Assembly: GCA_032139905.1 (NCBI GenBank)
Contig: JAQJDB010000007.1
Span: 1,178,001-1,242,000, forward strand
Source: Nitrospira sp. MA-1
GTDB taxonomy: Bacteria > Nitrospirota > Nitrospiria > Nitrospirales > UBA8639
DNA length: 64,000 bases
Direction: 5' to 3'
Part shown: piece after piece, positions 24,749-39,762 of the stretch
Layout of the letters: each line of letters begins with the position of its first letter
Position numbering within the stretch: position 1 is the stretch's first letter
Notes under the pieces: model-generated
Database searches by the model: none
The model's input: the letters and a program-made list of their open reading frames with translations, nothing else
What the model was told of the DNA's origin: nothing
Program-made: the position numbers and the translations under genes

Positions 24749-27103
24749 ATGGCGTCCATCCTTGTAATTAATGATGATCCGGTCCAACTCCATCTTCTTG
24801 CGAGTTGGCTTGAGAAGGATTACTTTGCGGTCAATCGCTTTGTCTGTTCTGAAGATGCCTGGCGGTGGCTCCAAGAAGGAAATGTGCCGGATGCCATTGT
24901 CCTCGATCTCCATATGCCGGGAATTAGCGGATGGCGATTTTGCGAATTGTTGCATTCATTCTTTGGTTCCACACAGGCAGTGCCCCCTGTTCTTGCGGTT
25001 TCCGCCACGTATACTGGAATTGATGCTCATGACATTTTGAAAGATTTAGGGGCTTCGGCATTTCTTGCTCTCCCGACAGAACCTCAACGCTTTCGTCAGC
25101 AGGTTTGCGAGTTAGTGGAGAACCCTCCTAGTCCTCAACGCCCACATGTTTGGATGGTTTCCACCCACAAGTCCGAAATCCAACGAATTCATCACATATT
25201 TGGTGAACGGGGATGGCAGGTGGTGGAATGGCAAGCGGGGAAACAGGTTCAGGTGGCAGTGAATCTTGTGCTTCCTGATATTGTCCTCATTGACCATCCG
25301 CTGTCGGACATGACAAGCGAAGAGTTTGTGATTTGGTGCAAAGTCCAATATCCTCAGGCAATGTGCATTGTCCTTGGACAGGAATCTACAGCCCGAGGAT
25401 ACCCTGCTCATTCGATCCATGCTGATGCCTATCTCCCAAAAGAGTGCGATCCATTGCATATTATTTCACTATGTGAAAAAGGGCGCTGGGAACGGGCACT
25501 CTCACGAGTAGAGCATTTACTGGATATCCGTACTGATGATTTACGCGAATCTGAAGCCCAATTTAAAGAGTTGTTCGAAACGCTTCCGGATGTCTTGGTG
25601 ATTTATGATTTCCAGGGAAAAATCACCCATGTTAATTCGCTTGGAGCGCAGCAATTGGGGTATCTCCCGTCTGTCTTGAATGGGAAAGCCTTCTCTCTTA
25701 TCAGACCTGAGCCATCAAGTGGGGAATCCGGTCCCACGTTGCCAAGCTCTGCCCCTGGGGGGGCGAGATGGGAGGAAACGGTCCTTCGTCAAAAGAACGG
25801 CAGCAATCTTCCCGTAGAGATGATGGAACGGGAGGTTCAGTTTTTAGGCCAGCGTCAAACTCTTTTTATTGGACGCGATTTGACGGCAAGAAAGCGCATG
25901 GAGGAAGAGAATATTGCCCTTGAGCATCAGTTGCGGCAGGTTCAAAAAATGGAAGCCATCGGTCGACTAGCCTCAGGGGTTGCCCACGATATGAATAATA
26001 CGTTAACGGCAATCATGGCCCATGCAAGTTTGTTCAAGATACAGGAAAAGACCGACACCCCCTTGTGGGCAGCGGGCGATGTCATCGAAAAAGCCGTTCG
26101 TCGTGGAAAGGAATTGACATCCCAGCTCTTGGGGTATGCCAGGCAGGGAAAGCATCATGATGTGACGGTCGATACCCATGATGTAATTCAGGAGGTCATG
26201 ACACTGCTCGGAAGGACAATCCATAAAATGATCACCTTCCGAACTGACCTGTCCGCTACGAAGCCTTATGTGTTGGGGGATCCCAATCAGTTATACCAGA
26301 TTCTCATGAATTTAGGTGTCAATGCCTGTGATGCGATGGGTGAGCGTGGGGAATTGCTTGTGCAGACTTCGAATGAAACGGTCACCCAGGAATACGCTTC
26401 ACGTGTCCCAGGACTTCACGCAGGTGATTATGTGGTAATTCGGGTTACGGATACCGGGACCGGAATGTCATTAGAGACCCAACGACATATTTTTGAGCCA
26501 TTCTTTACGACGAAAGGCCGAGGACAGGGAACAGGAATGGGATTGGCGATGGTGTATGGAATCGTCAAAAACCATCGCGGGTATATCGGGGTGACCAGTT
26601 CTCCTGGGTGTGGAACGACAATGCGTTTATATCTTCCGGATGCCCTATGTGCGAGCCTTAAGGACACACCTGTTCAGACGACGAAGCCTTCTCACGGAAC
26701 CGGGCATATTGTAGTGATTGATGATGAGAAGGATGTGGGAGAAGCCGCTCAGGCCATACTTGAATTCCTTGGCTATCAGGTTACGGTTGTGTTGAATGGG
26801 AAGGAGGCCCTGAAAATCTGCCGGGATTTGACTGTTCCCGTTGATGTTGTGCTGTTGGATATGGTGATGCCTGAAATGTCGGGAGCGACATGTTTTGAAG
26901 AATTGCGAGCGATTCGACCAGATCTCAAGGTAATTCTCTGTACGGGGTATGATCGGAACCATGCTGTGCAAGATTTACTCAATCAGGGTGTCGTAGGGTT
27001 TATTCAAAAACCGTATGATGTCGACGAATTGGCTCATGCCTGTCAGATTGTCTTGAGAGATGACAATCCGGTCCAAATCTGTGGTACGGAGAGGGTGTCC
27101 TAA
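24749..27103 (+). CDS. Hybrid histidine kinase with two N-terminal receiver-like domains and a C-terminal receiver
   Basis: 784 residues, cytoplasmic. In order: receiver 1 (1-120, D53 present but the usual Lys replaced in FLALPTE), a more degenerate receiver-like region (about 130-250), PAS (about 275-385), HisKA with H413 (GVAHDMNNTLTAI), HATPase (about 510-635; GTGMGLAMVYGIV) and an intact C-terminal receiver with D704 (LLDMVMPEMSG). The fold resembles NtrB-like hybrid kinases. Translation is probably coupled to the diguanylate cyclase gene just upstream. The pair is likely to set c-di-GMP in step with flagellar assembly (inference). Confidence 0.93.
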   Translation: MASILVINDDPVQLHLLASWLEKDYFAVNRFVCSEDAWRWLQEGNVPDAIVLDLHMPGISGWRFCELLHSFFGSTQAVPPVLAVSATYTGIDAHDILKDLGASAFLALPTEPQRFRQQVCELVENPPSPQRPHVWMVSTHKSEIQRIHHIFGERGWQVVEWQAGKQVQVAVNLVLPDIVLIDHPLSDMTSEEFVIWCKVQYPQAMCIVLGQESTARGYPAHSIHADAYLPKECDPLHIISLCEKGRWERALSRVEHLLDIRTDDLRESEAQFKELFETLPDVLVIYDFQGKITHVNSLGAQQLGYLPSVLNGKAFSLIRPEPSSGESGPTLPSSAPGGARWEETVLRQKNGSNLPVEMMEREVQFLGQRQTLFIGRDLTARKRMEEENIALEHQLRQVQKMEAIGRLASGVAHDMNNTLTAIMAHASLFKIQEKTDTPLWAAGDVIEKAVRRGKELTSQLLGYARQGKHHDVTVDTHDVIQEVMTLLGRTIHKMITFRTDLSATKPYVLGDPNQLYQILMNLGVNACDAMGERGELLVQTSNETVTQEYASRVPGLHAGDYVVIRVTDTGTGMSLETQRHIFEPFFTTKGRGQGTGMGLAMVYGIVKNHRGYIGVTSSPGCGTTMRLYLPDALCASLKDTPVQTTKPSHGTGHIVVIDDEKDVGEAAQAILEFLGYQVTVVLNGKEALKICRDLTVPVDVVLLDMVMPEMSGATCFEELRAIRPDLKVILCTGYDRNHAVQDLLNQGVVGFIQKPYDVDELAHACQIVLRDDNPVQICGTERVS

Positions 27104-27188
27104 TCACAGAAAAAATGAAACCGACCCCGAGGCGGGGTTGCCTTGGCATGAGGAAGAAACCATTGAACTATTTGGAGAACATACCATC

Positions 27189-27665
27189 ATGAAAGTTCAG
27201 ACTAGTCGGTTCGGTATGTTGGATGTGTCGGATGACACGCTGTTAACTTTCCCATCCGGCCTCGTAGGTTTCCCAGATTTCCGACGGTATCTCGTACTTG
27301 ATCCGCCAGAGGATGCCGACTATCAGTGGTTTCAGTCGGTGGATGAACCAAGTTTAGCTTTTGTGATTATGGATGTGGATTTGTTGCAACCCGATTTTCG
27401 TACAAACCTATCCGGAGAAGGATTGGCTGAATTGGATATGACTCCTGCCGATCCAATTTCAATTATGGCCGTTATCTCGATCCCTTCAGATCATCCAGAT
27501 CAGGCGACAGCAAATCTTCGTGCCCCTCTGGTCGTAAATGGGCGAACCAGACAAGGGAAACAATTGATTCTCCATGAATCAATCTCCTTGCGCCATCCAT
27601 TATTCCATGATGTGGCGGAAGGTCAACCCCACCCTGAAGGGGTGACAGAGGCTGCATCGGTCTAA
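27189..27665 (+). CDS. fliW: Flagellar assembly factor FliW
   Basis: 158 residues with the FliW signature (LLTFPSGLVGFPDFRRYLVLDP near residue 20-40, then a core with NLRAPLVVNGRTRQGKQLIL). FliW binds both flagellin and CsrA: when free flagellin is low, FliW sequesters CsrA less or more accordingly, which tunes flagellin translation. ATG 27189 with GGAGA ten bases upstream is chosen; an in-frame extension to 27060 overlaps the kinase gene and is not FliW-like. csrA follows after 110 bases. Confidence 0.95.
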   Translation: MKVQTSRFGMLDVSDDTLLTFPSGLVGFPDFRRYLVLDPPEDADYQWFQSVDEPSLAFVIMDVDLLQPDFRTNLSGEGLAELDMTPADPISIMAVISIPSDHPDQATANLRAPLVVNGRTRQGKQLILHESISLRHPLFHDVAEGQPHPEGVTEAASV

Positions 27666-27775: not shown

Positions 27776-28027
27776 ATGCTCATACTCACCAGAAAAATTG
27801 ATGAAGCTATTCGATTAGGAGATGACATTCGCATTGTCCTTGTCCAAATTAAAGGAGGACAGGTGCGACTCGGAATTGAATGTCCGTCGCATGTCCGTGT
27901 TCTTCGTGAGGAATTATATGAAGCCGTCCGGCAGGAAAATTTGAATGCCGTATCCTCGGATCCGAAGCTTTTGGCCAGCCTACCCAGACAGAAAAGACCT
28001 CAGGCTAAACCTACCGAATCAACCTAA
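27776..28027 (+). CDS. csrA: Carbon storage/translational regulator CsrA
   Basis: 83 residues. The first 50 match CsrA closely (MLILTRKIDEAIRLGDDIRI, GGQVRLGIECP, VRVLREELYE), including the RNA-contacting Arg of VRVLREE. The C-terminal 25 residues are a polar extension, longer than the 61-residue E. coli protein. It binds GGA motifs in mRNA leaders. Pairing with fliW suggests flagellin mRNA as main target. AAGGAAGG precedes the ATG. Confidence 0.96.
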   Translation: MLILTRKIDEAIRLGDDIRIVLVQIKGGQVRLGIECPSHVRVLREELYEAVRQENLNAVSSDPKLLASLPRQKRPQAKPTEST

Positions 28028-28575: not shown

Positions 28576-31500
28576 ATGAAATCCTATTTCACAAGCGCCG
28601 GTTATTTTTTCAATAAAGATGAGGGAGTGTGGCATCGCCCTGGATATAAAGGCATCAATTATAGTGATGGCGAGCAAATTGAAAACCGATTGAAAACGAT
28701 TATTTCCGGTGCGAGCGATGTCAGTGTGATGTCGGGCGAATTGGCAAAATCCTGTACGGATTGGCATTCGCTGTATCATTTATCACGGAAACGCGTCAAT
28801 CTGCTTCGGCCCTTTGAGGAACAATTACAAGGGAAAAGTGTACTTGAAATCGGTGCGGGGTGCGGTGCGCTCACGCGTTATCTCGGTGAAATAGGAGCGG
28901 AGGTGGTGGCACTGGAAGGGAGCCTCCGTCGCGCATCGATTGCGTCATTGCGTTGCCGTGGCCTGAGCAATGTCACAGTTATTGGGGAAGTTGTTCATCA
29001 TTTTAATCCTGGACCACAGTTTGATGTCGTGACCGTTATTGGAGTTTTAGAATATGCCAGGAAATTTTTCCCAGGTGATGGGGCAGACCCAGTTGATGCT
29101 ATGTTGGTTTTTATGAAGGGTTTGTTAAAGCCTGGAGGTACATTGATTATCGCTATTGAAAACCAGCTAGGGTTGAAATATTTTGCCGGATTTCCCGAAG
29201 ACCATATGGGCAAGCCCATGTTTGGCATCGAAGAACATTACACCAAAGGGAGCATTGTGACCTTTGGCCGGAGAGAGCTTAGCCGAAGAGTCGGTCAGGC
29301 TGGCCTACCTGAACAGGAATGGTGGTATCCCTTTCCGGATTACAAGCTACCAAGCTTGATGGTGTCGGAACGCGGGGCCATGCCGCAGGACGGTATTGAT
29401 CTGACCCCGGTCCTGCGTAGTGCGTGCACCGACGACCCGCAATTTCCAGCTCGTATTCATTTTAATCAGGAACGAGCTTTGCGCCCAATTGTTCGTAATG
29501 GTCTTTTGCCTGATTTGGCGAATTCCTTTGTATTACTGGCCACAGACCTCGCTTGTAAGGAAAAATCAATTGTTCCTCTCGCGGTACATTATGCAACTGG
29601 GAGAAGGCCAGAATTTGCCAAAAAGGTCGTTTTTACACAGGAGAGTCAGCGTGCCGATTATACCTCTCAAGTGCGGCTGTACCCTACTGACACCCCAAAT
29701 AAGAATTCATTGGTTACCCAACGGCTTGTTGATCAAACATTTGTGAAAGGCGAACTTTGGCAAGATCGGCTTGTACAAATCATGACCAGCCCTGGGTGGC
29801 GGGTTACGCAAATAGAAGAATGGTTAAAGGTCTGGCTGAAGGGGTTTTTCGACGTTGTGGGTATCCAGAAGTCAAACGATATGACTAAGAAGAAGGTATC
29901 AGGCCAATTCCTTGATCTTATTCCACGTAATATGATCATGGAAGGAAATGGTGAGGTGACATTTTTTGATCAAGAGTGGGTGCTTGGCGAAGACCTGGAG
30001 GTTGGTTATGTCGTCTTTCGTGCTTTGTTCTCTTCATTTTATGCTTTAGGCATGATAGCGCCAACGGGAGAAAAGACACTTCCTTCGATTCTTTCTCTTA
30101 TCAAGGATATTGGACAAGGGGCCGGCTTTTCGTTTACCGATCACGACATTAAGCACTATCACGATCTGGAATGTGAATTTCAGCGGCTTGTCGTAGGGGG
30201 TTGTAATCTCAGTTACGGAATGATGTCCGCGATGCAGTTCCGTGTATCCCATACGCAGTCGAATCAGGATGGTTATGGTGCTGAAGTTCATGGACAGAAC
30301 ATTATCCTTCAACAGGCCCTATTGGAAAAAACCCGACAAATTGCGGATCTTACGCAAACGGTAAAGGATTTAGATGAGCAGTTCATCCGCATTAATCGAG
30401 TCTTGTCTCAGAAGGAACTCAACAGAAACCTATCAGAGCCAAAAATGTGTTTGGATGATAGGATTTCCACCTCAGGTCAAAACTTTCAGTTGGCTCCACG
30501 CGTTGTGGCAATTATTAATGATCCCATATGCAGCCAAATCCGAATACTCCAAGCACTCACCGCGAGCGTAATGAAATCCTGGTTTGGCGGAATGGTGAAA
30601 ATTGAAGGAGCGGAGGGGAGCCATCCTCACCAATTACCAAGTGGTCCAGGAACGGTGTGGATTGTTCAGCGAACGTGTAGGATGGAAATCGCTGATATGG
30701 TTATTGCGCGATCGAATGGTACCCGTTTGGTCCACGATATCGATGATTTGCTCTGGAAGATCCCGGAAGATAATCAAAATCATCAAGTGATGAAGAAATG
30801 GCTTATTGACCATTTGATGAAATTGCTTGAATTGTCCGATTGCGTAACAACTTCTACCATTCCCTTACAAACCGCTTTGGAAAGTGTAGGAATCAAGGCT
30901 GCCCTTCTGCCGAATTGCTTGGTCTCCGAAGAGTGGAGGGATTTGGCTCCTCTCCGAGGGGGTGGCTCCAGGCCACGTATTGGTTGGGCTGGACAGGTTG
31001 GGGTACACCGTTCTGATCTCCGCTTCCTTGGTTCGGTGTTCGAGGAGTTAGGTGATGAGGTTGAGTGGGTATTTTTAGGAGAGGTGCCGGAAGATCTTCG
31101 ACGGACCGGGGTCAGATCTGAAGTCCATCCCATGGTTCCTTTAGGTCAATTTCCATCTAAACTTGCCAGTCTGAATCTTGATCTGGCTTTAGCTCCATTA
31201 GCCATAAATGAATTTAATGAGGCAAAAAGTGACCTTCGTCTTTTGCAATATGGTGTATTAGGATTTCCGGTCATTGCCACTGATATTTATCCTCATCGAA
31301 CTGCACCGGTCACCCGAGTTCCTAATGATCCTCAAGCCTGGGTACGAGCAATTCGGGATCATCTTTATAATTCGGATCATTCTGAGAAAGAGGGCAAAGT
31401 TTTAAGGGAGTGGGTCCTAAGGCATCGAATGTTGGAATCCTGGCTACCACAATATCGAGCCGTATGGCTGGGTGAATCTGCTAACAGGCGGGATCATTCA

Positions 31501-33222
31501 ACCTTTTCCGTATTGGGGAATAACGAGGCTCGATCAACTCCGACTTCCTACATGCCAATTGTTGATACACAATATGAGTGTTCTATTATTATTCCCGTGT
31601 GTAATCGTGATGATTTAACGAAGCAATGCCTGTTGCATTTGGCCGAAGTGACACAAGGATGCCACTATGAGGTTCTTGTGGTGGATAATGCGTCGACGGA
31701 TGAGACTCAGAATTTTCTGGCTTCATTCGGGGGGGATATTCAGATAATTCGGAATACTGAAAATCTAGGATTTGCAAAGGCCTGTAATCAAGGGGCTCGT
31801 GCCGCACGAGGAAAGTATTTAATCTTCCTGAACAATGACACTATTCCACAATCAGGATGGTTGACAGCTTTGTTGGAGGAAGTTGAGACGCACGATGATG
31901 TTTCCATTGTCGGCAGTAAACTGTTGTATCCGAATGACACCATTCAACATGCCGGAGTGGTTTTTTCTAAAAACTGCCTGACTCCCTATCATATTTTCAG
32001 TGGAGCCCCTGCGGGTCTTCATGCAGCCAATGTTCGCCGTGAATTTCAAGCAGTGACGGCGGCCTGTTTTCTGATTCGCAGAGAAGATTTTGAGTCAATC
32101 GGGGGATTTGATGAGGAATTCCGAAACGGGTTTGAGGATGTTGATTTGTGTTTGAAAATCCGAGAGCGCGGTAAAAAAATTATCTACCAACCCAAGAGTG
32201 TATTGTATCATCTGGAACATCAAACTCCCGGTCGCAAAGATCCGGAAGCAGAACGTCATAACGGGAATCGCCTGATGAGCCGCTGGGGTTCAAAGATTGT
32301 AGTGGATGAAGACGTATATACCGTTCCGGAAGGCTATGCCAATCGCTATTATTTTCGTGACGGGTGGCTTCGGCAGTCGCTCGAACCATTTCGGAGCGAT
32401 GGAGAACGGACCCAGTGGAATCGGGTCCAACGCGTACAAGAGCTCTTATTATCCCGGCGATATGACCCAATTCGAGGCATTAAAAAACAGGACAATGGTG
32501 AATTACATGCCCTTCTTTCCGATTTTCGCGAGTGGCCAGATGATGGAGAAGTGTTGCGGTGGGCCGTGAAACTCTGTCGAACATTGCAGTTATTCGATGG
32601 GGAGCGGGCATTTTTGACACGCCTTCTGAGTCTTGGAGAAGATCGAGAGATCCGGGAACAGCTAGCAAAACTGGCACTCAACGTGAAAGATCTGTCCGAC
32701 GCGGCTCAACATGTCCAGGCCCTCATTCAAACAGACCCCAACGATGGTTCAGCACATTGGTTACAGGGGATCCTGTTCATGCAATCCCAGGAATGGGGAG
32801 AAGCGAGAAAGTCTTTTCGGCGCGCTCTTCAATATGGCTCAGATTCCCGAAAAACCAACATCGGCTTGGGAATGGCATGTATGGGGATGGGAGACGGGGA
32901 AGAAGCCTGGAGGGTTTTCGACGAAGTTGTGGCAGATCATCCTGATGATGTTGAAGCCATGAATGGGTTGATTCAAGCCGGAACATCTCTGCAACGATGG
33001 AAAGACTTAGGGGAACGGCTTTCACGGTATGTCGAACGCAATCCCGCAAACTGCGATATGCGGTTTGCTTTGGCTGGTGTGCATTTTCGTGCTAGTCGGC
33101 TTGATTTGGCCAAGCAACAATTTGAGATGTTGCGCCTCTTAATGCCCGACCATGAGGGATTACTTGATTTAGGGGCTCTCCTCCAGACCGCACCTCGAGA
33201 CCTCCATGCCATCGCAACATAA
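28576..33222 (+). CDS. Giant multidomain glycan enzyme: methyltransferase, kinase-like region, coiled coil, two glycosyltransferases, TPR
   Basis: 1548 residues. A class I SAM methyltransferase is at about 60-290 (VLEIGAGCGALTRYL, 89-103). A kinase-like region at about 300-520 has D447-LIPR-N452 followed by FFD465QEW, the spacing of an APH-type catalytic loop and metal site. A coiled coil lies at about 570-625. A GT4-type glycosyltransferase is at about 700-960 (GWAGQVGVHRSD). A GT2 domain is at about 1000-1250 (nucleotide site VVDNASTDETQN, metal site NNDT at 1086-1089). TPR-like helices fill about 1330-1540. The first three parts match the order in WbdD, the kinase-methyltransferase that caps O-antigen chains. 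Its place between fliW/csrA and fliC suggests flagellin glycan synthesis and capping (inference); a surface polysaccharide is the alternative. Confidence 0.85.
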   Translation: MKSYFTSAGYFFNKDEGVWHRPGYKGINYSDGEQIENRLKTIISGASDVSVMSGELAKSCTDWHSLYHLSRKRVNLLRPFEEQLQGKSVLEIGAGCGALTRYLGEIGAEVVALEGSLRRASIASLRCRGLSNVTVIGEVVHHFNPGPQFDVVTVIGVLEYARKFFPGDGADPVDAMLVFMKGLLKPGGTLIIAIENQLGLKYFAGFPEDHMGKPMFGIEEHYTKGSIVTFGRRELSRRVGQAGLPEQEWWYPFPDYKLPSLMVSERGAMPQDGIDLTPVLRSACTDDPQFPARIHFNQERALRPIVRNGLLPDLANSFVLLATDLACKEKSIVPLAVHYATGRRPEFAKKVVFTQESQRADYTSQVRLYPTDTPNKNSLVTQRLVDQTFVKGELWQDRLVQIMTSPGWRVTQIEEWLKVWLKGFFDVVGIQKSNDMTKKKVSGQFLDLIPRNMIMEGNGEVTFFDQEWVLGEDLEVGYVVFRALFSSFYALGMIAPTGEKTLPSILSLIKDIGQGAGFSFTDHDIKHYHDLECEFQRLVVGGCNLSYGMMSAMQFRVSHTQSNQDGYGAEVHGQNIILQQALLEKTRQIADLTQTVKDLDEQFIRINRVLSQKELNRNLSEPKMCLDDRISTSGQNFQLAPRVVAIINDPICSQIRILQALTASVMKSWFGGMVKIEGAEGSHPHQLPSGPGTVWIVQRTCRMEIADMVIARSNGTRLVHDIDDLLWKIPEDNQNHQVMKKWLIDHLMKLLELSDCVTTSTIPLQTALESVGIKAALLPNCLVSEEWRDLAPLRGGGSRPRIGWAGQVGVHRSDLRFLGSVFEELGDEVEWVFLGEVPEDLRRTGVRSEVHPMVPLGQFPSKLASLNLDLALAPLAINEFNEAKSDLRLLQYGVLGFPVIATDIYPHRTAPVTRVPNDPQAWVRAIRDHLYNSDHSEKEGKVLREWVLRHRMLESWLPQYRAVWLGESANRRDHSTFSVLGNNEARSTPTSYMPIVDTQYECSIIIPVCNRDDLTKQCLLHLAEVTQGCHYEVLVVDNASTDETQNFLASFGGDIQIIRNTENLGFAKACNQGARAARGKYLIFLNNDTIPQSGWLTALLEEVETHDDVSIVGSKLLYPNDTIQHAGVVFSKNCLTPYHIFSGAPAGLHAANVRREFQAVTAACFLIRREDFESIGGFDEEFRNGFEDVDLCLKIRERGKKIIYQPKSVLYHLEHQTPGRKDPEAERHNGNRLMSRWGSKIVVDEDVYTVPEGYANRYYFRDGWLRQSLEPFRSDGERTQWNRVQRVQELLLSRRYDPIRGIKKQDNGELHALLSDFREWPDDGEVLRWAVKLCRTLQLFDGERAFLTRLLSLGEDREIREQLAKLALNVKDLSDAAQHVQALIQTDPNDGSAHWLQGILFMQSQEWGEARKSFRRALQYGSDSRKTNIGLGMACMGMGDGEEAWRVFDEVVADHPDDVEAMNGLIQAGTSLQRWKDLGERLSRYVERNPANCDMRFALAGVHFRASRLDLAKQQFEMLRLLMPDHEGLLDLGALLQTAPRDLHAIAT

Positions 33223-33255: not shown

Positions 33256-34491
33256 ATGTCCCGAGCACTCTTAATTCAACTCGCTCGGTTAGGTGATCTG
33301 GTCCAATCCCTTCCTGTTTTGACAGCCCTACAATCTGCCAAACCTGAGCGACCCCTTGACCTTCTTTGCCCATCTCCCTTGGTGGCGCTTGGAGAACTTT
33401 TTCCTTGTGTGGACAGGGTTTACCCTTGGTATGGGGAACAATGGCATGAATTGGCCAGGACAAAGATGACGGATTGTGACCAGCAGTTAGCCCAAGCCAC
33501 GCGCTATTTGGCTGAACATGCCTTCCCCACGTATTCATTGGCCTATAATTTGAATAACCATCCTCGAGGGATACTTGCTGCCCATGTTTTGAGTAGTCTG
33601 GTGGTCGGCCCGGGAGAAAATGGGCCTCTGAATCAGAGGCTTCCCGCATGGGCGGGATATTTACGTCAGATTGCTCAAGATCGAGGGAGCAACCGGGTGC
33701 ATTTAGCGGATGCATTTTGCGGATTGTGTCAAGTTTTTCCGCCATTGGACATTCCCTACTTGAAGGCCCCGCTGGTGGAATTGCCTCTTGAGCTGGAATG
33801 GATGGTGAATGATCGATCTTCTACCCTCATCGGAATTGTTCTTGGTGCGGGAGATACCGAACGGCGGGTTCCCCTTTCTGTGTGGCAAGCCCTGATTTCC
33901 ACATGTGCTGAGTACATGCCTCAGAGCTACCTGCTTTTGATTGGTGGGGAGGGAGAACGGGAAGCGGCATTGGCCCTGGAACATCGCCTTCCCGCTAAAT
34001 ATCTCAATCGGGTGGTGAATGGGTGTGGTCGTACCTCGTTGCCCCAGCTTGTGGCTCTTTTTAATCGATGTCATTGGGTGGTCGGATCGGATACGGGACC
34101 GTTGCATCTCGGAGCGATGTGTGGGACACGGGCGATCGGTTGGTATTTCTCCCAGGCCAGAGTCCATGAAACCGGTCCCTATGGGGTTGGCCATTATGTG
34201 TGGCAACACGATCAAGGGCGATCTGGGGATGTTCTGGATGCTCGTGAATTACGAACGGAAGAGTCATCCTTTGCCCATTGGCCTGTGATGGAAACGGTCA
34301 ACTTAATACGGGATGAACGGGTGAATTCAAGAATTGACGAGTGGGATCTCTGGATCAGTAATAAAGATGAGTGGGGGGCGTTTTATACCACTGATGGCCT
34401 TCCTGACGAGGCTGTTCTTCAGCGAAAAGATACGTGGGAGGCGCTGTCTCAGCTGGCGAATCATAATATTCGGATGGAAGTCGCGAAGTAG
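33256..34491 (+). CDS. Glycosyltransferase family 9 (heptosyltransferase-like) protein
   Basis: 411 residues. The N-terminus ALLIQLARLGDLVQSLPVL and the C-terminal VVGSDTGPLHLGAMCGT motif define the GT9 family, whose known members add ADP-heptose in LPS core synthesis. The adjacent genes and fliC indicate that here the acceptor is more likely flagellin or its glycan. The last 90 residues extend beyond the GT9 fold. It starts 33 bases after the giant gene, so probably one transcript. Confidence 0.88.
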   Translation: MSRALLIQLARLGDLVQSLPVLTALQSAKPERPLDLLCPSPLVALGELFPCVDRVYPWYGEQWHELARTKMTDCDQQLAQATRYLAEHAFPTYSLAYNLNNHPRGILAAHVLSSLVVGPGENGPLNQRLPAWAGYLRQIAQDRGSNRVHLADAFCGLCQVFPPLDIPYLKAPLVELPLELEWMVNDRSSTLIGIVLGAGDTERRVPLSVWQALISTCAEYMPQSYLLLIGGEGEREAALALEHRLPAKYLNRVVNGCGRTSLPQLVALFNRCHWVVGSDTGPLHLGAMCGTRAIGWYFSQARVHETGPYGVGHYVWQHDQGRSGDVLDARELRTEESSFAHWPVMETVNLIRDERVNSRIDEWDLWISNKDEWGAFYTTDGLPDEAVLQRKDTWEALSQLANHNIRMEVAK

Positions 34492-34559: not shown

Positions 34560-36377
34560 ATGGACGTGTTGAAAAAGAATATCGATATTCTTCGAAGCCA
34601 GGATCCGATTCTTGCTGCTCAGATCCTCCAGGTGCCAGGAGGAACCCTGTCGATCCATCCAGCTAAATCCGGAATGCCAACCGCGCTGGTTAACTCCCGA
34701 TATCTTCATAGTGCGTATGATCCAGTTCGCGAAGCAGGGCGCTGGGCTGAAGAACGCGTGAAAGACTGTCAAGCAGGGGAAACGATTGTCCTCCTCGGCG
34801 TGGGACTGCTTTACCACGTGGAAGCCTTGCGTCAGATGTTGCCTCATGACCAGAACATGATGGTCGTGGTGCCGGACCTTTCCGAATTCGCAGATTGTGT
34901 TTCCGTCCGGTCCCTGGAAGGGTGGGGTGAACGGCTGATGTGGATGACGGGTTCCATCACTGATATGGCTGTCCAAGTGACCCAGAAAGCCAAGCGGGTT
35001 CGCATTCTGAGTTACGAACCTGCCGCCACGGTTCATCACGACCTCTATGAACATTTCCGTTTGCAACTTCGTGATCATCTCGCTCAAGGCTTAAGCGGAA
35101 CGCTTCACATCATGGTGATTGGTCCCATTTATGGCGGGTCTTTGCCCATTGCCCGATATGTGGTGAACGCCTTGGAAGGCCTTGGACATCGTGTGAGTTG
35201 GGTGGATCATAGTCCACATTATTCGGGATATCAGAATTTGGACACAATCCGTGATCATCGGCTGCGACTCACAGTCCAACAACGGATGAGTGAAACCTTG
35301 GCGGTGATTAGCCTGGCTCATGTGGCAGAAGATCCCCCTGACCTGGTTTTAGCCTTGTCCCAGGCGCCATTAACGATGGCGGTTTTGGAGCAGATGCGTC
35401 GAAAAAAGGTGTTAACGGCCATGTGGTTTGTAGAAAATTTTCGTCATCTAACCTATTGGCAGCAGATGGTGTCGGGATATGACTTTTGGTTTGTGATGCA
35501 ACAAGCCGCATGCTTGGACGCTTTCAGGAAGGCCGGAGCCAAACAGGTGTCGTATCTCCCCTTAGCTGCTGATCCGGCCATTCATCAACCAATGATCCTT
35601 ACCCAGGGAGCGCAATACGAGTTTGGTGCCGATGTGTCTTTTTTGGGGGCAGGGTATAGAAACCGGCGGCAGATCCTCCCATCCCTGGTCGGCCAAGGGT
35701 GGACTTTTAAATTGTGGGGGAATGAATGGGACAACCTTGGGCCGTTAGCCCAGGTTCTTCAGAGAGGGGGTGCACGCATTGATACCCCCACTAGTGTAAA
35801 AATTTTCAATGCCACCTCGGTCAATATTAATTTGCATTCTTATACGGGGGACGGATTCGATCCAGAGGGAGATGGGGTGAACCCCAGAACATTCGAATTA
35901 GCCAGTTGCGGGGCGTTCCAAGTGGTCGATGCTCGCACCTTGCTTCCGGCGCTCTTTGATGAATCGATGATGGCGGTCATCAACAGTCCGGATCAGCTTC
36001 TCCCAACCGTCCAAACTTATTTGCACGAACCAGCCAGACGAGTGGCCATGGCTGAATTGTCCCGGAAGCGCGTTTTAGAGGCGCACACGTACGGGCATCG
36101 GATGAGGACGTTTTTAGGTGCCGTGGGTATGGCGAGTCCTGATCGGCTAGGAGCCATTCTTCAGGGGGACCGTACGGCTGAATCGCTAGTGGCTCGGAGT
36201 GGACAGTCCCCCGAATTGATTCCCATGCTGCAGAAGTTTCTTCCGACCGATCGTGTGGAGTTAGTGGATGTGGCGAAAGACATTCGGAAGAAAGGGCCGG
36301 AAGCCCGGTTGAACCGTGAGGAATTACTAATTTTGATGATGGATGAATACCGACAGGAAAAACGAGATTTTCTTTAA
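34560..36377 (+). CDS. CgeB-like glycosyltransferase with MAF/DUF115-like N-terminus
   Basis: 605 residues. Residues 1-180 (SRYLHSAYDPVREAGRWAEE, then ETIVLLGVGLLYHVEALRQM) resemble the start of motility-associated factors of the Maf/DUF115 group. The rest (about 185-520) resembles the CgeB family of GT-B glycosyltransferases (IMVIGPIYGGSLPIARYVVN, VSFLGAGYRNRRQIL, FELASCGAFQVVDAR). Family members of this mixed type occur in flagellar glycosylation clusters. Substrate unknown. It stands 68 bases after the first GT9 gene. Confidence 0.78.
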   Translation: MDVLKKNIDILRSQDPILAAQILQVPGGTLSIHPAKSGMPTALVNSRYLHSAYDPVREAGRWAEERVKDCQAGETIVLLGVGLLYHVEALRQMLPHDQNMMVVVPDLSEFADCVSVRSLEGWGERLMWMTGSITDMAVQVTQKAKRVRILSYEPAATVHHDLYEHFRLQLRDHLAQGLSGTLHIMVIGPIYGGSLPIARYVVNALEGLGHRVSWVDHSPHYSGYQNLDTIRDHRLRLTVQQRMSETLAVISLAHVAEDPPDLVLALSQAPLTMAVLEQMRRKKVLTAMWFVENFRHLTYWQQMVSGYDFWFVMQQAACLDAFRKAGAKQVSYLPLAADPAIHQPMILTQGAQYEFGADVSFLGAGYRNRRQILPSLVGQGWTFKLWGNEWDNLGPLAQVLQRGGARIDTPTSVKIFNATSVNINLHSYTGDGFDPEGDGVNPRTFELASCGAFQVVDARTLLPALFDESMMAVINSPDQLLPTVQTYLHEPARRVAMAELSRKRVLEAHTYGHRMRTFLGAVGMASPDRLGAILQGDRTAESLVARSGQSPELIPMLQKFLPTDRVELVDVAKDIRKKGPEARLNREELLILMMDEYRQEKRDFL

Positions 36378-36416: not shown

Positions 36417-38072
36417 ATGAATAAACAAATCCTCATTATCAATATTACCCGGATGGGTGATTTGATTCAGATGGTTCCCTTGCTTTCACGTTTGGAGGAA
36501 GAATGGCCTGGTGTGGGCATTGATCTGATTGTTGATAAAGAATTTGCCCATGTGGCTAGCCTTATTCCTGGAATTCGACAGGTGTTGATGTTTGATTTTC
36601 AGCTGCTGATGGACGAGAGCCGCGTGGGAATACGGGATGTGGTGACCCTCTATCAGGATATTGCAGGTTGGGTACGACCGTTACTGCAGGTTGGGTACGA
36701 TCGTGTCGTGAATCTCACCTTTAATCGTCGCAGTGCGTTTCTGGTGAAGTATTTTGGGTGTGCAGATGAGCGAGGAATGACCACGACCCAGGATGGGAGT
36801 TTCGTGGTGAAAAATCCTTGGATGAAATATTTCGTGGATTTCCAAGTGTATCGGCAATTGAATCGGTTCAATATTGTTGATCTTTTTTCACTTGGTGGCA
36901 GTGGAACTGGATCGTTCCATCCTCTTCGTCTACATGTGCCACAGGACATGAAAGAATGGGCACGGACCTATTTGAGACGAGCAGGCACGGCGGATAAATG
37001 GATTGCCATTCAAGTCGGCGCCAGTGATCCGATGAAGGCCTGGCGACCGGAATATTACGGACAAATGATGGCGAGTCTTAGTCAAAAACAGCCAGTCGGA
37101 TTTCTCTTGATCGGGACCAAGAAAGAAGAGACGGATGTTCAGGAGGCTATTCGGTGTTACCGGCAGGCGGGAGGGTTGGGAATTCTTTGCGAAGCGGTCG
37201 GCCAAACTACAGTGCCGCAACTGGTGGCATTGCTTGAACATTGTCAGTTGATGGTGACCAATGATACAGGGCCTATGCACATGGCCGTGGGAGTGAATAC
37301 GCCGGTTCTTAACGTGTCAGTAGGTCATGTGAACTTTTGGGAAACCGGACCTTTTGGGCCAGGGCATTGGGTGGTTCAGCCCGAGATCCTGTGTGGCCCA
37401 TGTGGGTTCGATAAGGTCTGTCCTCACCATGCTTGTAAAGACCAGATCATTCCTCAAGAGATGGTCGATCTCTGTTTACATCTTATGGGTACTCGTCCCT
37501 TTCCTTCGTTTTCGTCCAAGATTCGGGTCTATGAGGGTGGCGTCAATGAAGATCAGTTAGGGACATTTACGATAAGAGCGGGAACGGAAGAACAAGCGGC
37601 CTCCTGGTATGCGGAGTATTGGCGCCAACATTGGTATGAATTTAATACCGGTACCTCGAGCCTGGTCCATTTTCCCCCAACTTCTCCACCGGATTTCCAA
37701 GAATGCGAGCAGGTATGGCGTCGTTTGGCTCCACAGCTCGATCAGTTGTGTATTCAAGCCGAGACGGTATTAGATATGTGTCGTCAAAGGCCCATTCCAG
37801 TTAATAGGTTGAAGGCGCAACAACATCAATTAAGTGTTGACACACTCACAATGCAACTGGTGGCCAGGCCGTCCTTGGCTTTTGGCCCGTTAGCAATGGC
37901 TTTTTATCGAGATACGTTAAGCTTGGAGTCCGCGACCCTCAGCGGCATGGCTGAGGAACATGTTCGAGCATATCATGTATTTCGCACCCGTGGGGAAGAA
38001 AATTATAGGCGGTTGAAAGAAATGTATTCTCATGATCCAAGGAGGGCTCTCTATGCATGTGCAATTGGATGA
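36417..38072 (+). CDS. Second glycosyltransferase family 9 (heptosyltransferase-like) protein
   Basis: 551 residues. The GT9 core is at about 1-370 (ILIINITRMGDLIQMVPLL, IAIQVGASDPMKAWRPEYYG, LMVTNDTGPMHMAVGVNTPV). A cysteine cluster CGPCGFDKVCPHHAC near residue 325-340 is also seen in some GT9 proteins and may bind metal. A helical tail of about 170 residues follows, with no family recognised. The 3' end overlaps the next gene by 20 bases. It differs clearly from the first GT9, so the two are not a recent duplication. Confidence 0.87.
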   Translation: MNKQILIINITRMGDLIQMVPLLSRLEEEWPGVGIDLIVDKEFAHVASLIPGIRQVLMFDFQLLMDESRVGIRDVVTLYQDIAGWVRPLLQVGYDRVVNLTFNRRSAFLVKYFGCADERGMTTTQDGSFVVKNPWMKYFVDFQVYRQLNRFNIVDLFSLGGSGTGSFHPLRLHVPQDMKEWARTYLRRAGTADKWIAIQVGASDPMKAWRPEYYGQMMASLSQKQPVGFLLIGTKKEETDVQEAIRCYRQAGGLGILCEAVGQTTVPQLVALLEHCQLMVTNDTGPMHMAVGVNTPVLNVSVGHVNFWETGPFGPGHWVVQPEILCGPCGFDKVCPHHACKDQIIPQEMVDLCLHLMGTRPFPSFSSKIRVYEGGVNEDQLGTFTIRAGTEEQAASWYAEYWRQHWYEFNTGTSSLVHFPPTSPPDFQECEQVWRRLAPQLDQLCIQAETVLDMCRQRPIPVNRLKAQQHQLSVDTLTMQLVARPSLAFGPLAMAFYRDTLSLESATLSGMAEEHVRAYHVFRTRGEENYRRLKEMYSHDPRRALYACAIG

Positions 38073-38601
38073 AGAAATCTGGGAAGTGAGTGATCGTGTT
38101 CAGCTAGGGGAAGTTTTGGCCAATTTGAGTGACCGCGCTCAGGCCAAAGGGTGTTTGGTAACGGAATTAAGGGTTGGTGATCGGAAAATGACGGATCGGG
38201 AGTTAGTGCCTCCCACCCTGGCTCAGGTGGCGAGTTCGTTTGGCTCTATCGCGGCCGTGAGCAAACATGTTGAAACCATAGTGCGGTATTCTGAAAAAAC
38301 GGGAACACAATTCGGAGCACAGCTATGCGATGAAGGGCAGAAGTTTGTGGATGCTTTCCGACAAGGGGATGGAAAGTTTCACCACTTAGACAAATGGTTT
38401 GGTCAAATTGCGGACTACCTGGAGTGGCTGAAGATTCATGAAATTGTGGGGCTTAAAAATCCCGAGGCTACAAGAGATTTATCGTTTTGGGTGAACGAAT
38501 TATTGAATGCTCGGGAAGTCGAAGATGAGGTTCGAATTGCGGACATGTTGGAGTATGAGGTCATTCCACGTCTTGTCCAAAAAAATCCTTCTCCCATGTA
38601 A
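38053..38601 (+). CDS. Uncharacterised protein of the flagellar glycosylation island
   Basis: 182 residues, no family recognised. The first 50 are beta-rich (VQLDEEIWEVSDRVQLGEVL); the rest looks like a helical bundle (SIAAVSKHVETIVRYSEKTG, WFGQIADYLEWLKIHEIVG). No signal peptide or TM helix. ATG 38053 has AAGGAGGG eight bases upstream and overlaps the GT9 gene by 20 bases, so translation is coupled. It is the last gene before fliC. A role as flagellin-binding or glycosylation accessory protein is only a guess from position. Confidence 0.75.
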   Translation: MHVQLDEEIWEVSDRVQLGEVLANLSDRAQAKGCLVTELRVGDRKMTDRELVPPTLAQVASSFGSIAAVSKHVETIVRYSEKTGTQFGAQLCDEGQKFVDAFRQGDGKFHHLDKWFGQIADYLEWLKIHEIVGLKNPEATRDLSFWVNELLNAREVEDEVRIADMLEYEVIPRLVQKNPSPM

Positions 38602-38934: not shown

Positions 38935-39762
38935 ATGGCACTTGTCGTTAACAACAACATCGCATCACTTAACGCTCAACGAAACTTGGGCGTGTCCAGT
39001 GCTCAATTGGAAGGGTCGGTCGCCCGTCTTTCTTCGGGTTTGCGAATCACCCGGGCGGCGGATGATGCGGCGGGATTAGGAATTTCTGAAACCTTACGGG
39101 CGCAAATTCGGAGCATTAATCAAGCCGTCAGAAACTCAAATGACGGCATTAGCTTATTGCAGATTGCAGACGGTGGCGCGGAAGGTATCGGTAATCTGTT
39201 AGGTCGGCTTCGTGAACTTGCCGAACAATCAGCCAGTGGAATCCTTGGATCGAATGAGCGGTCCTTCCTTGATCAGGAGTTTGTGGCCCTTCGGTCTGAA
39301 ATCGATCGAATCTCCTCGGTGACCGAGTTTAACGGAGTGAAACTGTTAAGTGGAACCGCTAATGACTCCTTAAGCATCCAAATCGGTTTTCGTAGTTCAG
39401 CGAATGATACGTTATCACTGTCCCTTAAGGATTTGAACACCACGACATTAAGTCTGGGCAGTGTCAATGTGTCTACTTCTGGCAATGCCTTAAGCGCACT
39501 GTCTAATATTGATAGTGCCATTAGTGCTGTGGCGTCTGCTCGAGCGAATATCGGGTCTTTGCAAAACAGGATCGATGCGGCTGTGGGGAATTTGCAAGTA
39601 GCCGGTGAGAATATCACCGCCGCAGAATCACGGATTCGGGATGCGGATATTGCCTTTGAATCAGCGAAGTTTGTTCGGAATCAGATATTGGTTCAGGCGG
39701 GTACGTCAATTTTGGCTCAAGCCAATACGTTGCCTCAACAAGCCCTTGCCTTGTTACAGTAA
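38935..39762 (+). CDS. fliC: Flagellin FliC
   Basis: 275 residues, the filament subunit. The N-terminal D0/D1 (SLNAQRNLGVSSAQLEGSVA, LSSGLRITRAADDAAGLGIS) and the C-terminal D1/D0 (AESRIRDADIAFESAKFVRN, then LAQANTLPQQALALLQ) are typical. The middle is almost absent (about 140-190), so D2 and D3 are lacking and the filament surface is small. It is rich in Ser and Thr there, possible O-glycosylation sites. Promoter, leader and terminator are listed separately. Confidence 0.97.
   Translation: MALVVNNNIASLNAQRNLGVSSAQLEGSVARLSSGLRITRAADDAAGLGISETLRAQIRSINQAVRNSNDGISLLQIADGGAEGIGNLLGRLRELAEQSASGILGSNERSFLDQEFVALRSEIDRISSVTEFNGVKLLSGTANDSLSIQIGFRSSANDTLSLSLKDLNTTTLSLGSVNVSTSGNALSALSNIDSAISAVASARANIGSLQNRIDAAVGNLQVAGENITAAESRIRDADIAFESAKFVRNQILVQAGTSILAQANTLPQQALALLQ

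What the first reader, a model, noticed from the sequence alone, without database searches (positions are those of the whole stretch)
28576..33222. WbdD-like methyltransferase-kinase-coiled-coil module fused to two glycosyltransferases in a flagellar cluster
One 1548-residue protein has a SAM methyltransferase (motif at 89-103), then a region with D447-LIPR-N452 and FFD465QEW that fits an APH/WbdD kinase catalytic loop, then a coiled coil, then GT4-type, GT2 and TPR parts. WbdD in E. coli O8/O9a has methyltransferase, kinase and coiled coil in this order and caps O-antigen chains by phospho-methylation. Its fusion to glycosyltransferases next to fliW, csrA and fliC suggests a single-protein machine that builds and caps a flagellin or surface glycan. 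The kinase call is by eye.
Basis: partly seen in the sequence, partly recalled or inferred. Interest (0 to 1): 0.65.

Follow-up and report, generated by a model that had tools for sequence, protein, structure and literature searches.

The report
Methyltransferase-kinase head on flagellar glycosyltransferase
A Nitrospirales bacterium carries, inside its flagellum gene cluster, a giant sugar-building enzyme whose front end is the same kind of methyltransferase-kinase that caps O-antigen sugar chains in Klebsiella O7, so its flagella may wear sugars capped with methyl-phosphate, which I found no report of for any flagellum.

Summary
The ORF is real: 1548 aa with methyltransferase (1-326), an unannotated domain with D447/N452/D465 (327-552), helical linker, GT4-like, GT2 and TPR parts. 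The domain call is right in kind, but the named relative is wrong: there is no useful sequence similarity to WbdD. The module matches the methyltransferase-kinase shown by experiment to terminate Klebsiella O7 O-antigen (ORF6; D441A kills the kinase): all seven published catalytic/SAM residues have counterparts, and homologues directly follow wzm-wzt on Citrobacter and Pseudomonas plasmids and in four other Nitrospirota. What is new is the setting. A separate lineage of the module (15 genomes, two Nitrospirota classes) sits in flagellar clusters. In this genus the flagellar GT4-GT2-TPR chassis is conserved, and the methyltransferase-kinase head is swapped with GT2 heads. In the window's own genome the O-antigen terminator has a plain methyltransferase head where a sister species has the methyltransferase-kinase. 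Best reading: a flagellin-glycan enzyme that phosphorylates and methylates a sugar, probably as an end cap. The coiled-coil 'ruler' is weak or absent in flagellar copies. Flagellin glycosylation and the product are inferred, not shown. New variant of a known kind.

The parts
28576..33222 (+). whole ORF, 1548 aa: methyltransferase-kinase head fused to GT4-GT2-TPR chassis
28576..29553 (+). SAM-dependent methyltransferase domain, residues about 1-326 (Y29, Y67, G93, G95, E114, Y160)
   Evidence: Pfam; model and VIA-align matches spanning residues 24-326, incl. CgnL 7pd7 Z 14.9; residue mapping to Klebsiella O7 ORF6
29554..30231 (+). kinase-like domain, residues about 327-552
   Evidence: conserved domain in 20 homologues, modelled with pLDDT mostly 75-94; equivalent to the experimentally tested kinase domain of ORF6
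29914..29979 (+). catalytic loop and metal site: D447-LIPR-N452 ... D465-Q-E467-W468
   Evidence: invariant or near-invariant columns; D-x4-N-x12-D spacing as in WbdD D351/N356/D369
30280..30432 (+). helical linker, residues about 569-619; coiled coil doubtful
   Evidence: helix; heptad test
30493..31470 (+). GT4-like glycosyltransferase domain, residues about 640-965
   Evidence: PF13692 E 0.0027; 49-54% identical domain at the same place in sister species
31558..32325 (+). GT2 glycosyltransferase domain, residues about 995-1250
32626..33219 (+). TPR domain, residues about 1351-1548
27060..27665 (+). fliW (first ATG given; true start may be later)
27776..28027 (+). csrA
33256..34491 (+). GT9-family glycosyltransferase
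34560..36377 (+). DUF3880 + Glyco_trans_1_2 glycosyltransferase
36417..38072 (+). GT9-family glycosyltransferase
38935..39762 (+). fliC, proposed substrate (Ser/Thr-rich centre, residues 140-192)

Best explanation
A flagellar branch of the Klebsiella O7 ORF6-type methyltransferase-kinase family, fused to the conserved flagellar glycosyltransferase chassis (GT4-GT2-TPR) of this genus. Proposed working: the TPR part holds flagellin in the cytoplasm; the GT4 and GT2 parts, with the neighbouring GT9, DUF3880-GT and GT9 enzymes, build a short O-glycan on the Ser/Thr-rich middle of FliC; the head then phosphorylates (D447, N452, D465) and O-methylates (SAM domain) an outer sugar, probably as a non-reducing-end methyl-phosphate cap. 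Shown here: architecture, homology to the characterised terminator type, conserved catalytic residues, conserved flagellar linkage, head swapping. Inferred: activity of this protein, flagellin as the substrate, and a cap rather than a side decoration.
For: The paper on Klebsiella O7 ORF6 shows methyltransferase plus an unannotated kinase domain (D441A inactive) making a terminal methyl-phosphate (PMC11231755). All seven named residues map: Y28/Y66/G91/G93/E112/Y158/D441 to Y29/Y67/G93/G95/E114/Y160/D447, and a Pseudomonas plasmid homologue (38% identity over 546 residues, right after wzt) has the first six at identical numbers and D443. D447/N452/E467/W468 invariant, D465 nearly so. 15 of 19 Nitrospirota loci lie in flagellar clusters, the other 4 after wzm-wzt. 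Flagellar and wzt-linked copies separate on the tree. Same chassis with another head in sister species with 94-97% identical FliC. Precedent for TPR domains binding flagellin: FlmG (PMC7591256).
Against: No kinase fold match could be obtained for the domain alone; sequence searches find no kinase. The ORF6-O7 sequence itself was not at hand; the match rests on published residue numbers and on homologues in the same setting. No glycan data exist for this organism. The tree is small, unrooted and has long branches.
Confidence: 0.6

Rival explanations
1. Same enzyme chemistry, but not a chain terminator: the head puts phosphate and methyl on an inner or side sugar of the flagellin glycan as a decoration, without controlling chain length.
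For: Coiled coil weak or missing in flagellar copies; in G005-G007 and G486 the head lies mid-protein between GT-TPR units; flagellin glycans are usually short (general knowledge).
Against: The known relative makes a terminal methyl-phosphate, and both catalytic sites are kept in the intact flagellar copies.
Confidence: 0.23
2. True WbdD orthologue: ePK-like kinase plus phosphate methyltransferase with a coiled-coil ruler, taken from an O9a-type O-antigen system.
For: Same domain order and the same D-x4-N-x12-D spacing; profile comparison aligns this loop in register.
Against: No BLAST similarity to E. coli HS WbdD; profile match only at the SAM motif (prob 33%) and 21 columns of the catalytic loop (prob 8%); H132-H133 replaced by E159-Y160; the Klebsiella paper states that the O7-type kinase differs from WbdD.
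Confidence: 0.05
3. The head serves the LPS O-antigen in trans, and its place among flagellar genes is incidental.
For: Relatives in four Nitrospirota and two plasmids are O-antigen-type terminators after wzt.
Against: The window's own genome has a wzm-wzt locus with its own terminator (methyltransferase head on the shared CC-GT2-WbsX chassis); flagellar linkage is kept in 15 loci of two classes; G246 has one copy in each setting.
Confidence: 0.06
4. The head is catalytically dead or acts on something else (for example the protein itself) and mainly scaffolds the GT complex.
For: The kinase part evolves fast (about 25% identity between settings against over 50% for the methyltransferase); no kinase hit by sequence.
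Against: Catalytic residues are kept at 16-20% identity.
Confidence: 0.06

Closest known systems
Klebsiella pneumoniae O7 ORF6, bifunctional methyltransferase-kinase terminator (PMC11231755)
   Same: Methyltransferase, then an unannotated kinase domain of similar size, then GT modules in one polypeptide; named SAM and catalytic residues in matching order and spacing; closest solved methyltransferase fold includes CgnL in both.
   Different: Flagellar cluster instead of wzm-wzt O-antigen cluster; GT4 + GT2 + TPR instead of CBM + coiled coil + two GT2; long coiled-coil ruler not evident.
E. coli O9a WbdD
   Same: Order methyltransferase then kinase; D-x4-N-x12-D catalytic spacing; presumably the same kind of product.
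   Different: No sequence homology beyond generic motifs; other methyltransferase active site; no long coiled coil; not in an O-antigen locus.
FlmG of Caulobacter, TPR-GT flagellin glycosyltransferase (PMC7591256)
   Same: TPR joined to a glycosyltransferase acting on flagellin in the cytoplasm (proposed here).
   Different: GT-B with pseudaminic acid; no methyltransferase or kinase; TPR at the N-terminus.
b-type (P. aeruginosa PAO1) and Type A (C. difficile 630) phospho-methyl flagellin glycans (PMC11833859)
   Same: Flagellin glycans carrying phosphate and methyl groups, made by glycosylation-island enzymes.
   Different: There the phosphate links a methylated threonine, proposed to come from CDP-threonine; no such cytidylyltransferase or phosphotransferase lies between csrA and fliC here.

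Membership tests
Klebsiella O7 ORF6-type methyltransferase-kinase | SAM-binding residues Y28, Y66, G91, G93, E112, Y158 of ORF6 | tested here: met
   Y29, Y67, G93, G95, E114, Y160; invariant in 18 homologues; identical numbers in the Pseudomonas plasmid homologue. Compared with published numbers; the ORF6 sequence itself was not available.
Klebsiella O7 ORF6-type methyltransferase-kinase | about 220-residue kinase domain after the methyltransferase with catalytic Asp (D441) | tested here: met
   D447 invariant in 20 sequences, domain about 327-552
Klebsiella O7 ORF6-type methyltransferase-kinase | AmiN/APH-like kinase fold | tested here: inconclusive
   fold searches were filled by the methyltransferase; APH profile aligns the catalytic loop in register but without significance
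Klebsiella O7 ORF6-type chain terminator | coiled-coil ruler after the kinase | tested here: inconclusive
   helix 569-619 predicted, heptad signal below shuffled maximum, absent in G005-G007
Klebsiella O7 ORF6-type chain terminator | encoded in a wzm-wzt (ABC-transporter) O-polysaccharide cluster | tested here: not met
   flagellar cluster; only the sister lineage of the head is wzt-linked
[quoted passage not shown]
   needs enzyme assay or MS/NMR
WbdD (E. coli O9a) | sequence homology over methyltransferase and kinase | tested here: not met
   BLAST E 3; hhalign prob 33% and 8%
WbdD (E. coli O9a) | phosphate-methylation residues H132-H133 | tested here: not met
   E159-Y160 at the same distance after the FD motif (PMC3482155)
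WbdD (E. coli O9a) | kinase catalytic D351, N356, D369 in order and spacing | tested here: met
   D447, N452, D465
WbdD (E. coli O9a) | long coiled coil after the kinase | tested here: inconclusive
   WbdD 488-595 is detected by the same test, the window is not; the test is crude
flagellin O-glycosylation system | GT genes kept next to fliC across species | tested here: met
   DUF3880-GT in 19 of 21 genomes of the genus, with the same flagellar flank wherever 20 kb were read
flagellin O-glycosylation system | glycan on flagellin, made by these enzymes | not testable with these tools
   no experimental data for this organism
b-type/Type A phospho-threonine flagellin glycan pathway | nucleotidyltransferase and phosphotransferase in the island | tested here: not met
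   none by Pfam between csrA and fliC; genes elsewhere in the genome not searched

The most novel reading that the evidence does not exclude
An O-antigen-type chain-terminator head has formed its own flagellar lineage: flagellin glycans of many Nitrospirota end in a methyl-phosphate cap, and such cap modules are swapped like cassettes on flagellar and O-antigen glycosyltransferase chassis while flagellin itself stays nearly unchanged, as a way of varying the cell surface (for example against phages).
Probability: 0.42. Interest if true: 0.68.

Novelty: new variant of a known kind. Interest (0 to 1): 0.5.

Why it matters
Methyl-phosphate capping is known as the stop signal of ABC-exported O-antigens. 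Finding the same catalytic head, with its active-site residues kept, as a separate lineage in flagellar clusters predicts a new type of flagellin glycan and offers a natural experiment: sister species share nearly identical flagellin (94-97%) and the same glycosyltransferase chassis but differ in the head. It also shows terminator heads to be exchangeable modules between O-antigen and flagellar machines.

Tried and rejected
First structure model (10 sequences) was poor, pLDDT 57; a wider alignment gave pLDDT 83, pTM 0.87. Foldseek and VIA-align then listed only methyltransferases, because that domain fills the list, so the absence of WbdD or AmiN from the lists says nothing; no third model was allowed. 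Sequence and profile searches of the kinase part against PDB and Pfam gave nothing. Profile comparison with APH kinases from the same phylum puts the catalytic loop in register but is not significant. No relative in viral contigs. E. coli genomes: the Citrobacter head gene has no match; the Pseudomonas gene matches only in its GT2 part. One genome-contig scan found only close relatives. No paper in the open-licence library joins WbdD or methyl phosphate to a flagellin glycan (the S-layer paper PMC6254364 cites WbdD for a phosphate-terminated S-layer glycan). Considered and rejected: WbdD orthology; O-antigen terminator acting in trans; the CDP-threonine route of b-type flagellin. Promoter and terminator scan was at chance level.

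Full report
OBSERVATION. The ORF at 28576-33222 (+) encodes 1548 aa. Pfam finds a class I methyltransferase (75-244), a GT2 domain (1003-1173) and TPRs (1363-1465); residues 266-545 have no Pfam match and the GT4-like part only a weak one. Upstream lie FlgN, FlgK, FlgL, a GGDEF response regulator, a histidine kinase, FliW and CsrA; downstream GT9, DUF3880-GT, GT9, a small unknown protein, FliC, FlaG, FliD and FliS. The organism belongs to the Nitrospirales: a named relative is the MAG NPIRA06, 92% identical in the N-terminal module.

THE KINASE CALL. No sequence search of the region hits a kinase. But across 20 homologues, with as little as 16-20% identity in this domain, D447, N452, E467 and W468 are invariant, and D465 is D in 19 and E in one. 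The D-x4-N-x12-D spacing equals that of WbdD D351-N356-D369 (WbdD residues from PMC3482155; positions checked in E. coli HS WbdD). An AlphaFold2 model from 18 sequences is good (pLDDT 83, pTM 0.87; 86-94 around the catalytic loop) and shows a methyltransferase of about 1-326 and a second domain from about 336 to 540. The fold of that second domain could not be searched apart from the methyltransferase.

WHICH FAMILY. Against E. coli HS WbdD there is no BLAST match; profile comparison aligns only the SAM motif and 21 columns of the catalytic loop. A 2024 study of Klebsiella O7 (PMC11231755) describes ORF6: methyltransferase, an unannotated 223-residue domain that proved to be a kinase (AmiN-like; D441A inactive), CBM, coiled coil, two GT2 modules; it terminates the O7 chain with methyl-phosphate and is stated to differ from WbdD in the kinase. 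The paper names SAM residues Y28, Y66, G91, G93, E112, Y158. A plasmid-borne Pseudomonas asturiensis homologue (38% identical to the window head over 546 residues, right after wzm-wzt) has exactly these numbers and D443; the window protein has Y29, Y67, G93, G95, E114, Y160, D447. A Citrobacter braakii plasmid homologue also follows wzm-wzt and the rhamnose genes. The head therefore belongs with the O7 type, not with WbdD. The ORF6 sequence itself was not at hand, so this rests on published residue numbers and on homologues in the same setting.

GENOMIC SETTINGS. Among the Nitrospirota genomes searched 19 loci carry the head. Four lie directly after wzm-wzt (G019, G011, G246, G357). Fifteen lie in flagellar clusters or in the conserved GT9-DUF3880-GT9 flank: window, G003, G005, G006, G007, G009, G016, G020, G486, G219, a second G246 copy, G347, G552 (a fragment), G553, G555. 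The tree separates flagellar from wzt-linked copies (99/99), and the seven flagellar copies of the window's family form one clade (100/100); the root is unknown and two outer groups are long-branched.

HEAD SWAPPING. The DUF3880-GT is present in 19 of 21 genomes of the genus. In species without the head (G019, G011, G017, G004, G008, G010, G002) the slot before GT9 holds a protein of 1.7-1.9 thousand residues with the same GT4-GT2-linker-TPR chassis (GT2 66-75% identical to the window's) but with one or two GT2 domains in front; in G005-G007 and G486 the methyltransferase-kinase sits among GT-TPR units of proteins of 2.5-3.4 thousand residues. FliC stays 94-97% identical between the window and G019, G011, G017 and G004. 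In the window's own genome the wzm-wzt locus has a 1093-aa protein whose C-terminal 800 residues are 83% identical to G019's terminator, but whose head is a plain methyltransferase where G019 has the methyltransferase-kinase. So heads are exchanged on both chassis.

HOW IT MAY WORK. Inference: TPRs bind flagellin, as shown for FlmG (PMC7591256); GT4, GT2 and the three neighbouring GTs build a glycan on the Ser/Thr-rich FliC centre (34% Ser/Thr in residues 140-192 against 18% overall); the head phosphorylates and methylates an outer sugar. That the result is a cap is by analogy with ORF6. The coiled-coil ruler of O-antigen terminators is weak here and missing in the mid-protein heads, which fits a short glycan without length measurement and is the main reason to keep 'decoration, not terminator' as a rival.

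NOVELTY. Known: the catalytic head and its O-antigen role; flagellin glycans with phosphate and methyl groups of another chemistry (PMC11833859). New as far as the searched open-licence literature shows (the ORF6 paper does not mention flagella): this head as a flagellar lineage fused to flagellar glycosyltransferases, and its swapping. Verdict: new variant of a known kind; enzymatic product and substrate untested.

Noticed in passing
L127 6694-9975 (own genome C7, about 510.7-514.0 kb): O-antigen-type protein after wzm-wzt: plain methyltransferase head on a coiled-coil/GT2/WbsX body that is 83% identical to G019's, whose head is a methyltransferase-kinase: terminator-head swap between sister species.
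   Followed up: partly
L070 5621-8200 (G219 flagellar cluster): A cytidylyltransferase-PEP mutase fusion next to a protein whose N-terminus resembles CDP-glycerol glycerophosphotransferase and continues into the methyltransferase-kinase: hints at phosphonate on a flagellin glycan.
   Followed up: no
L046 1549-10635, L047 2-10108, L048 7346-14836, L090 4200-13094: Flagellar glycosylation proteins of 2496-3368 residues with repeated GT2-linker-TPR units around an internal methyltransferase-kinase.
   Followed up: partly
38032-38601: Small protein of 189 aa without Pfam match, conserved between the last GT9 gene and fliC across the genus (33-83% identical).
   Followed up: no
L073 7282-20913: A conjugative Citrobacter braakii plasmid carries a whole O-antigen-type cluster: rhamnose genes, wzm, wzt, methyltransferase-kinase, glycosyltransferases.
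   Followed up: no
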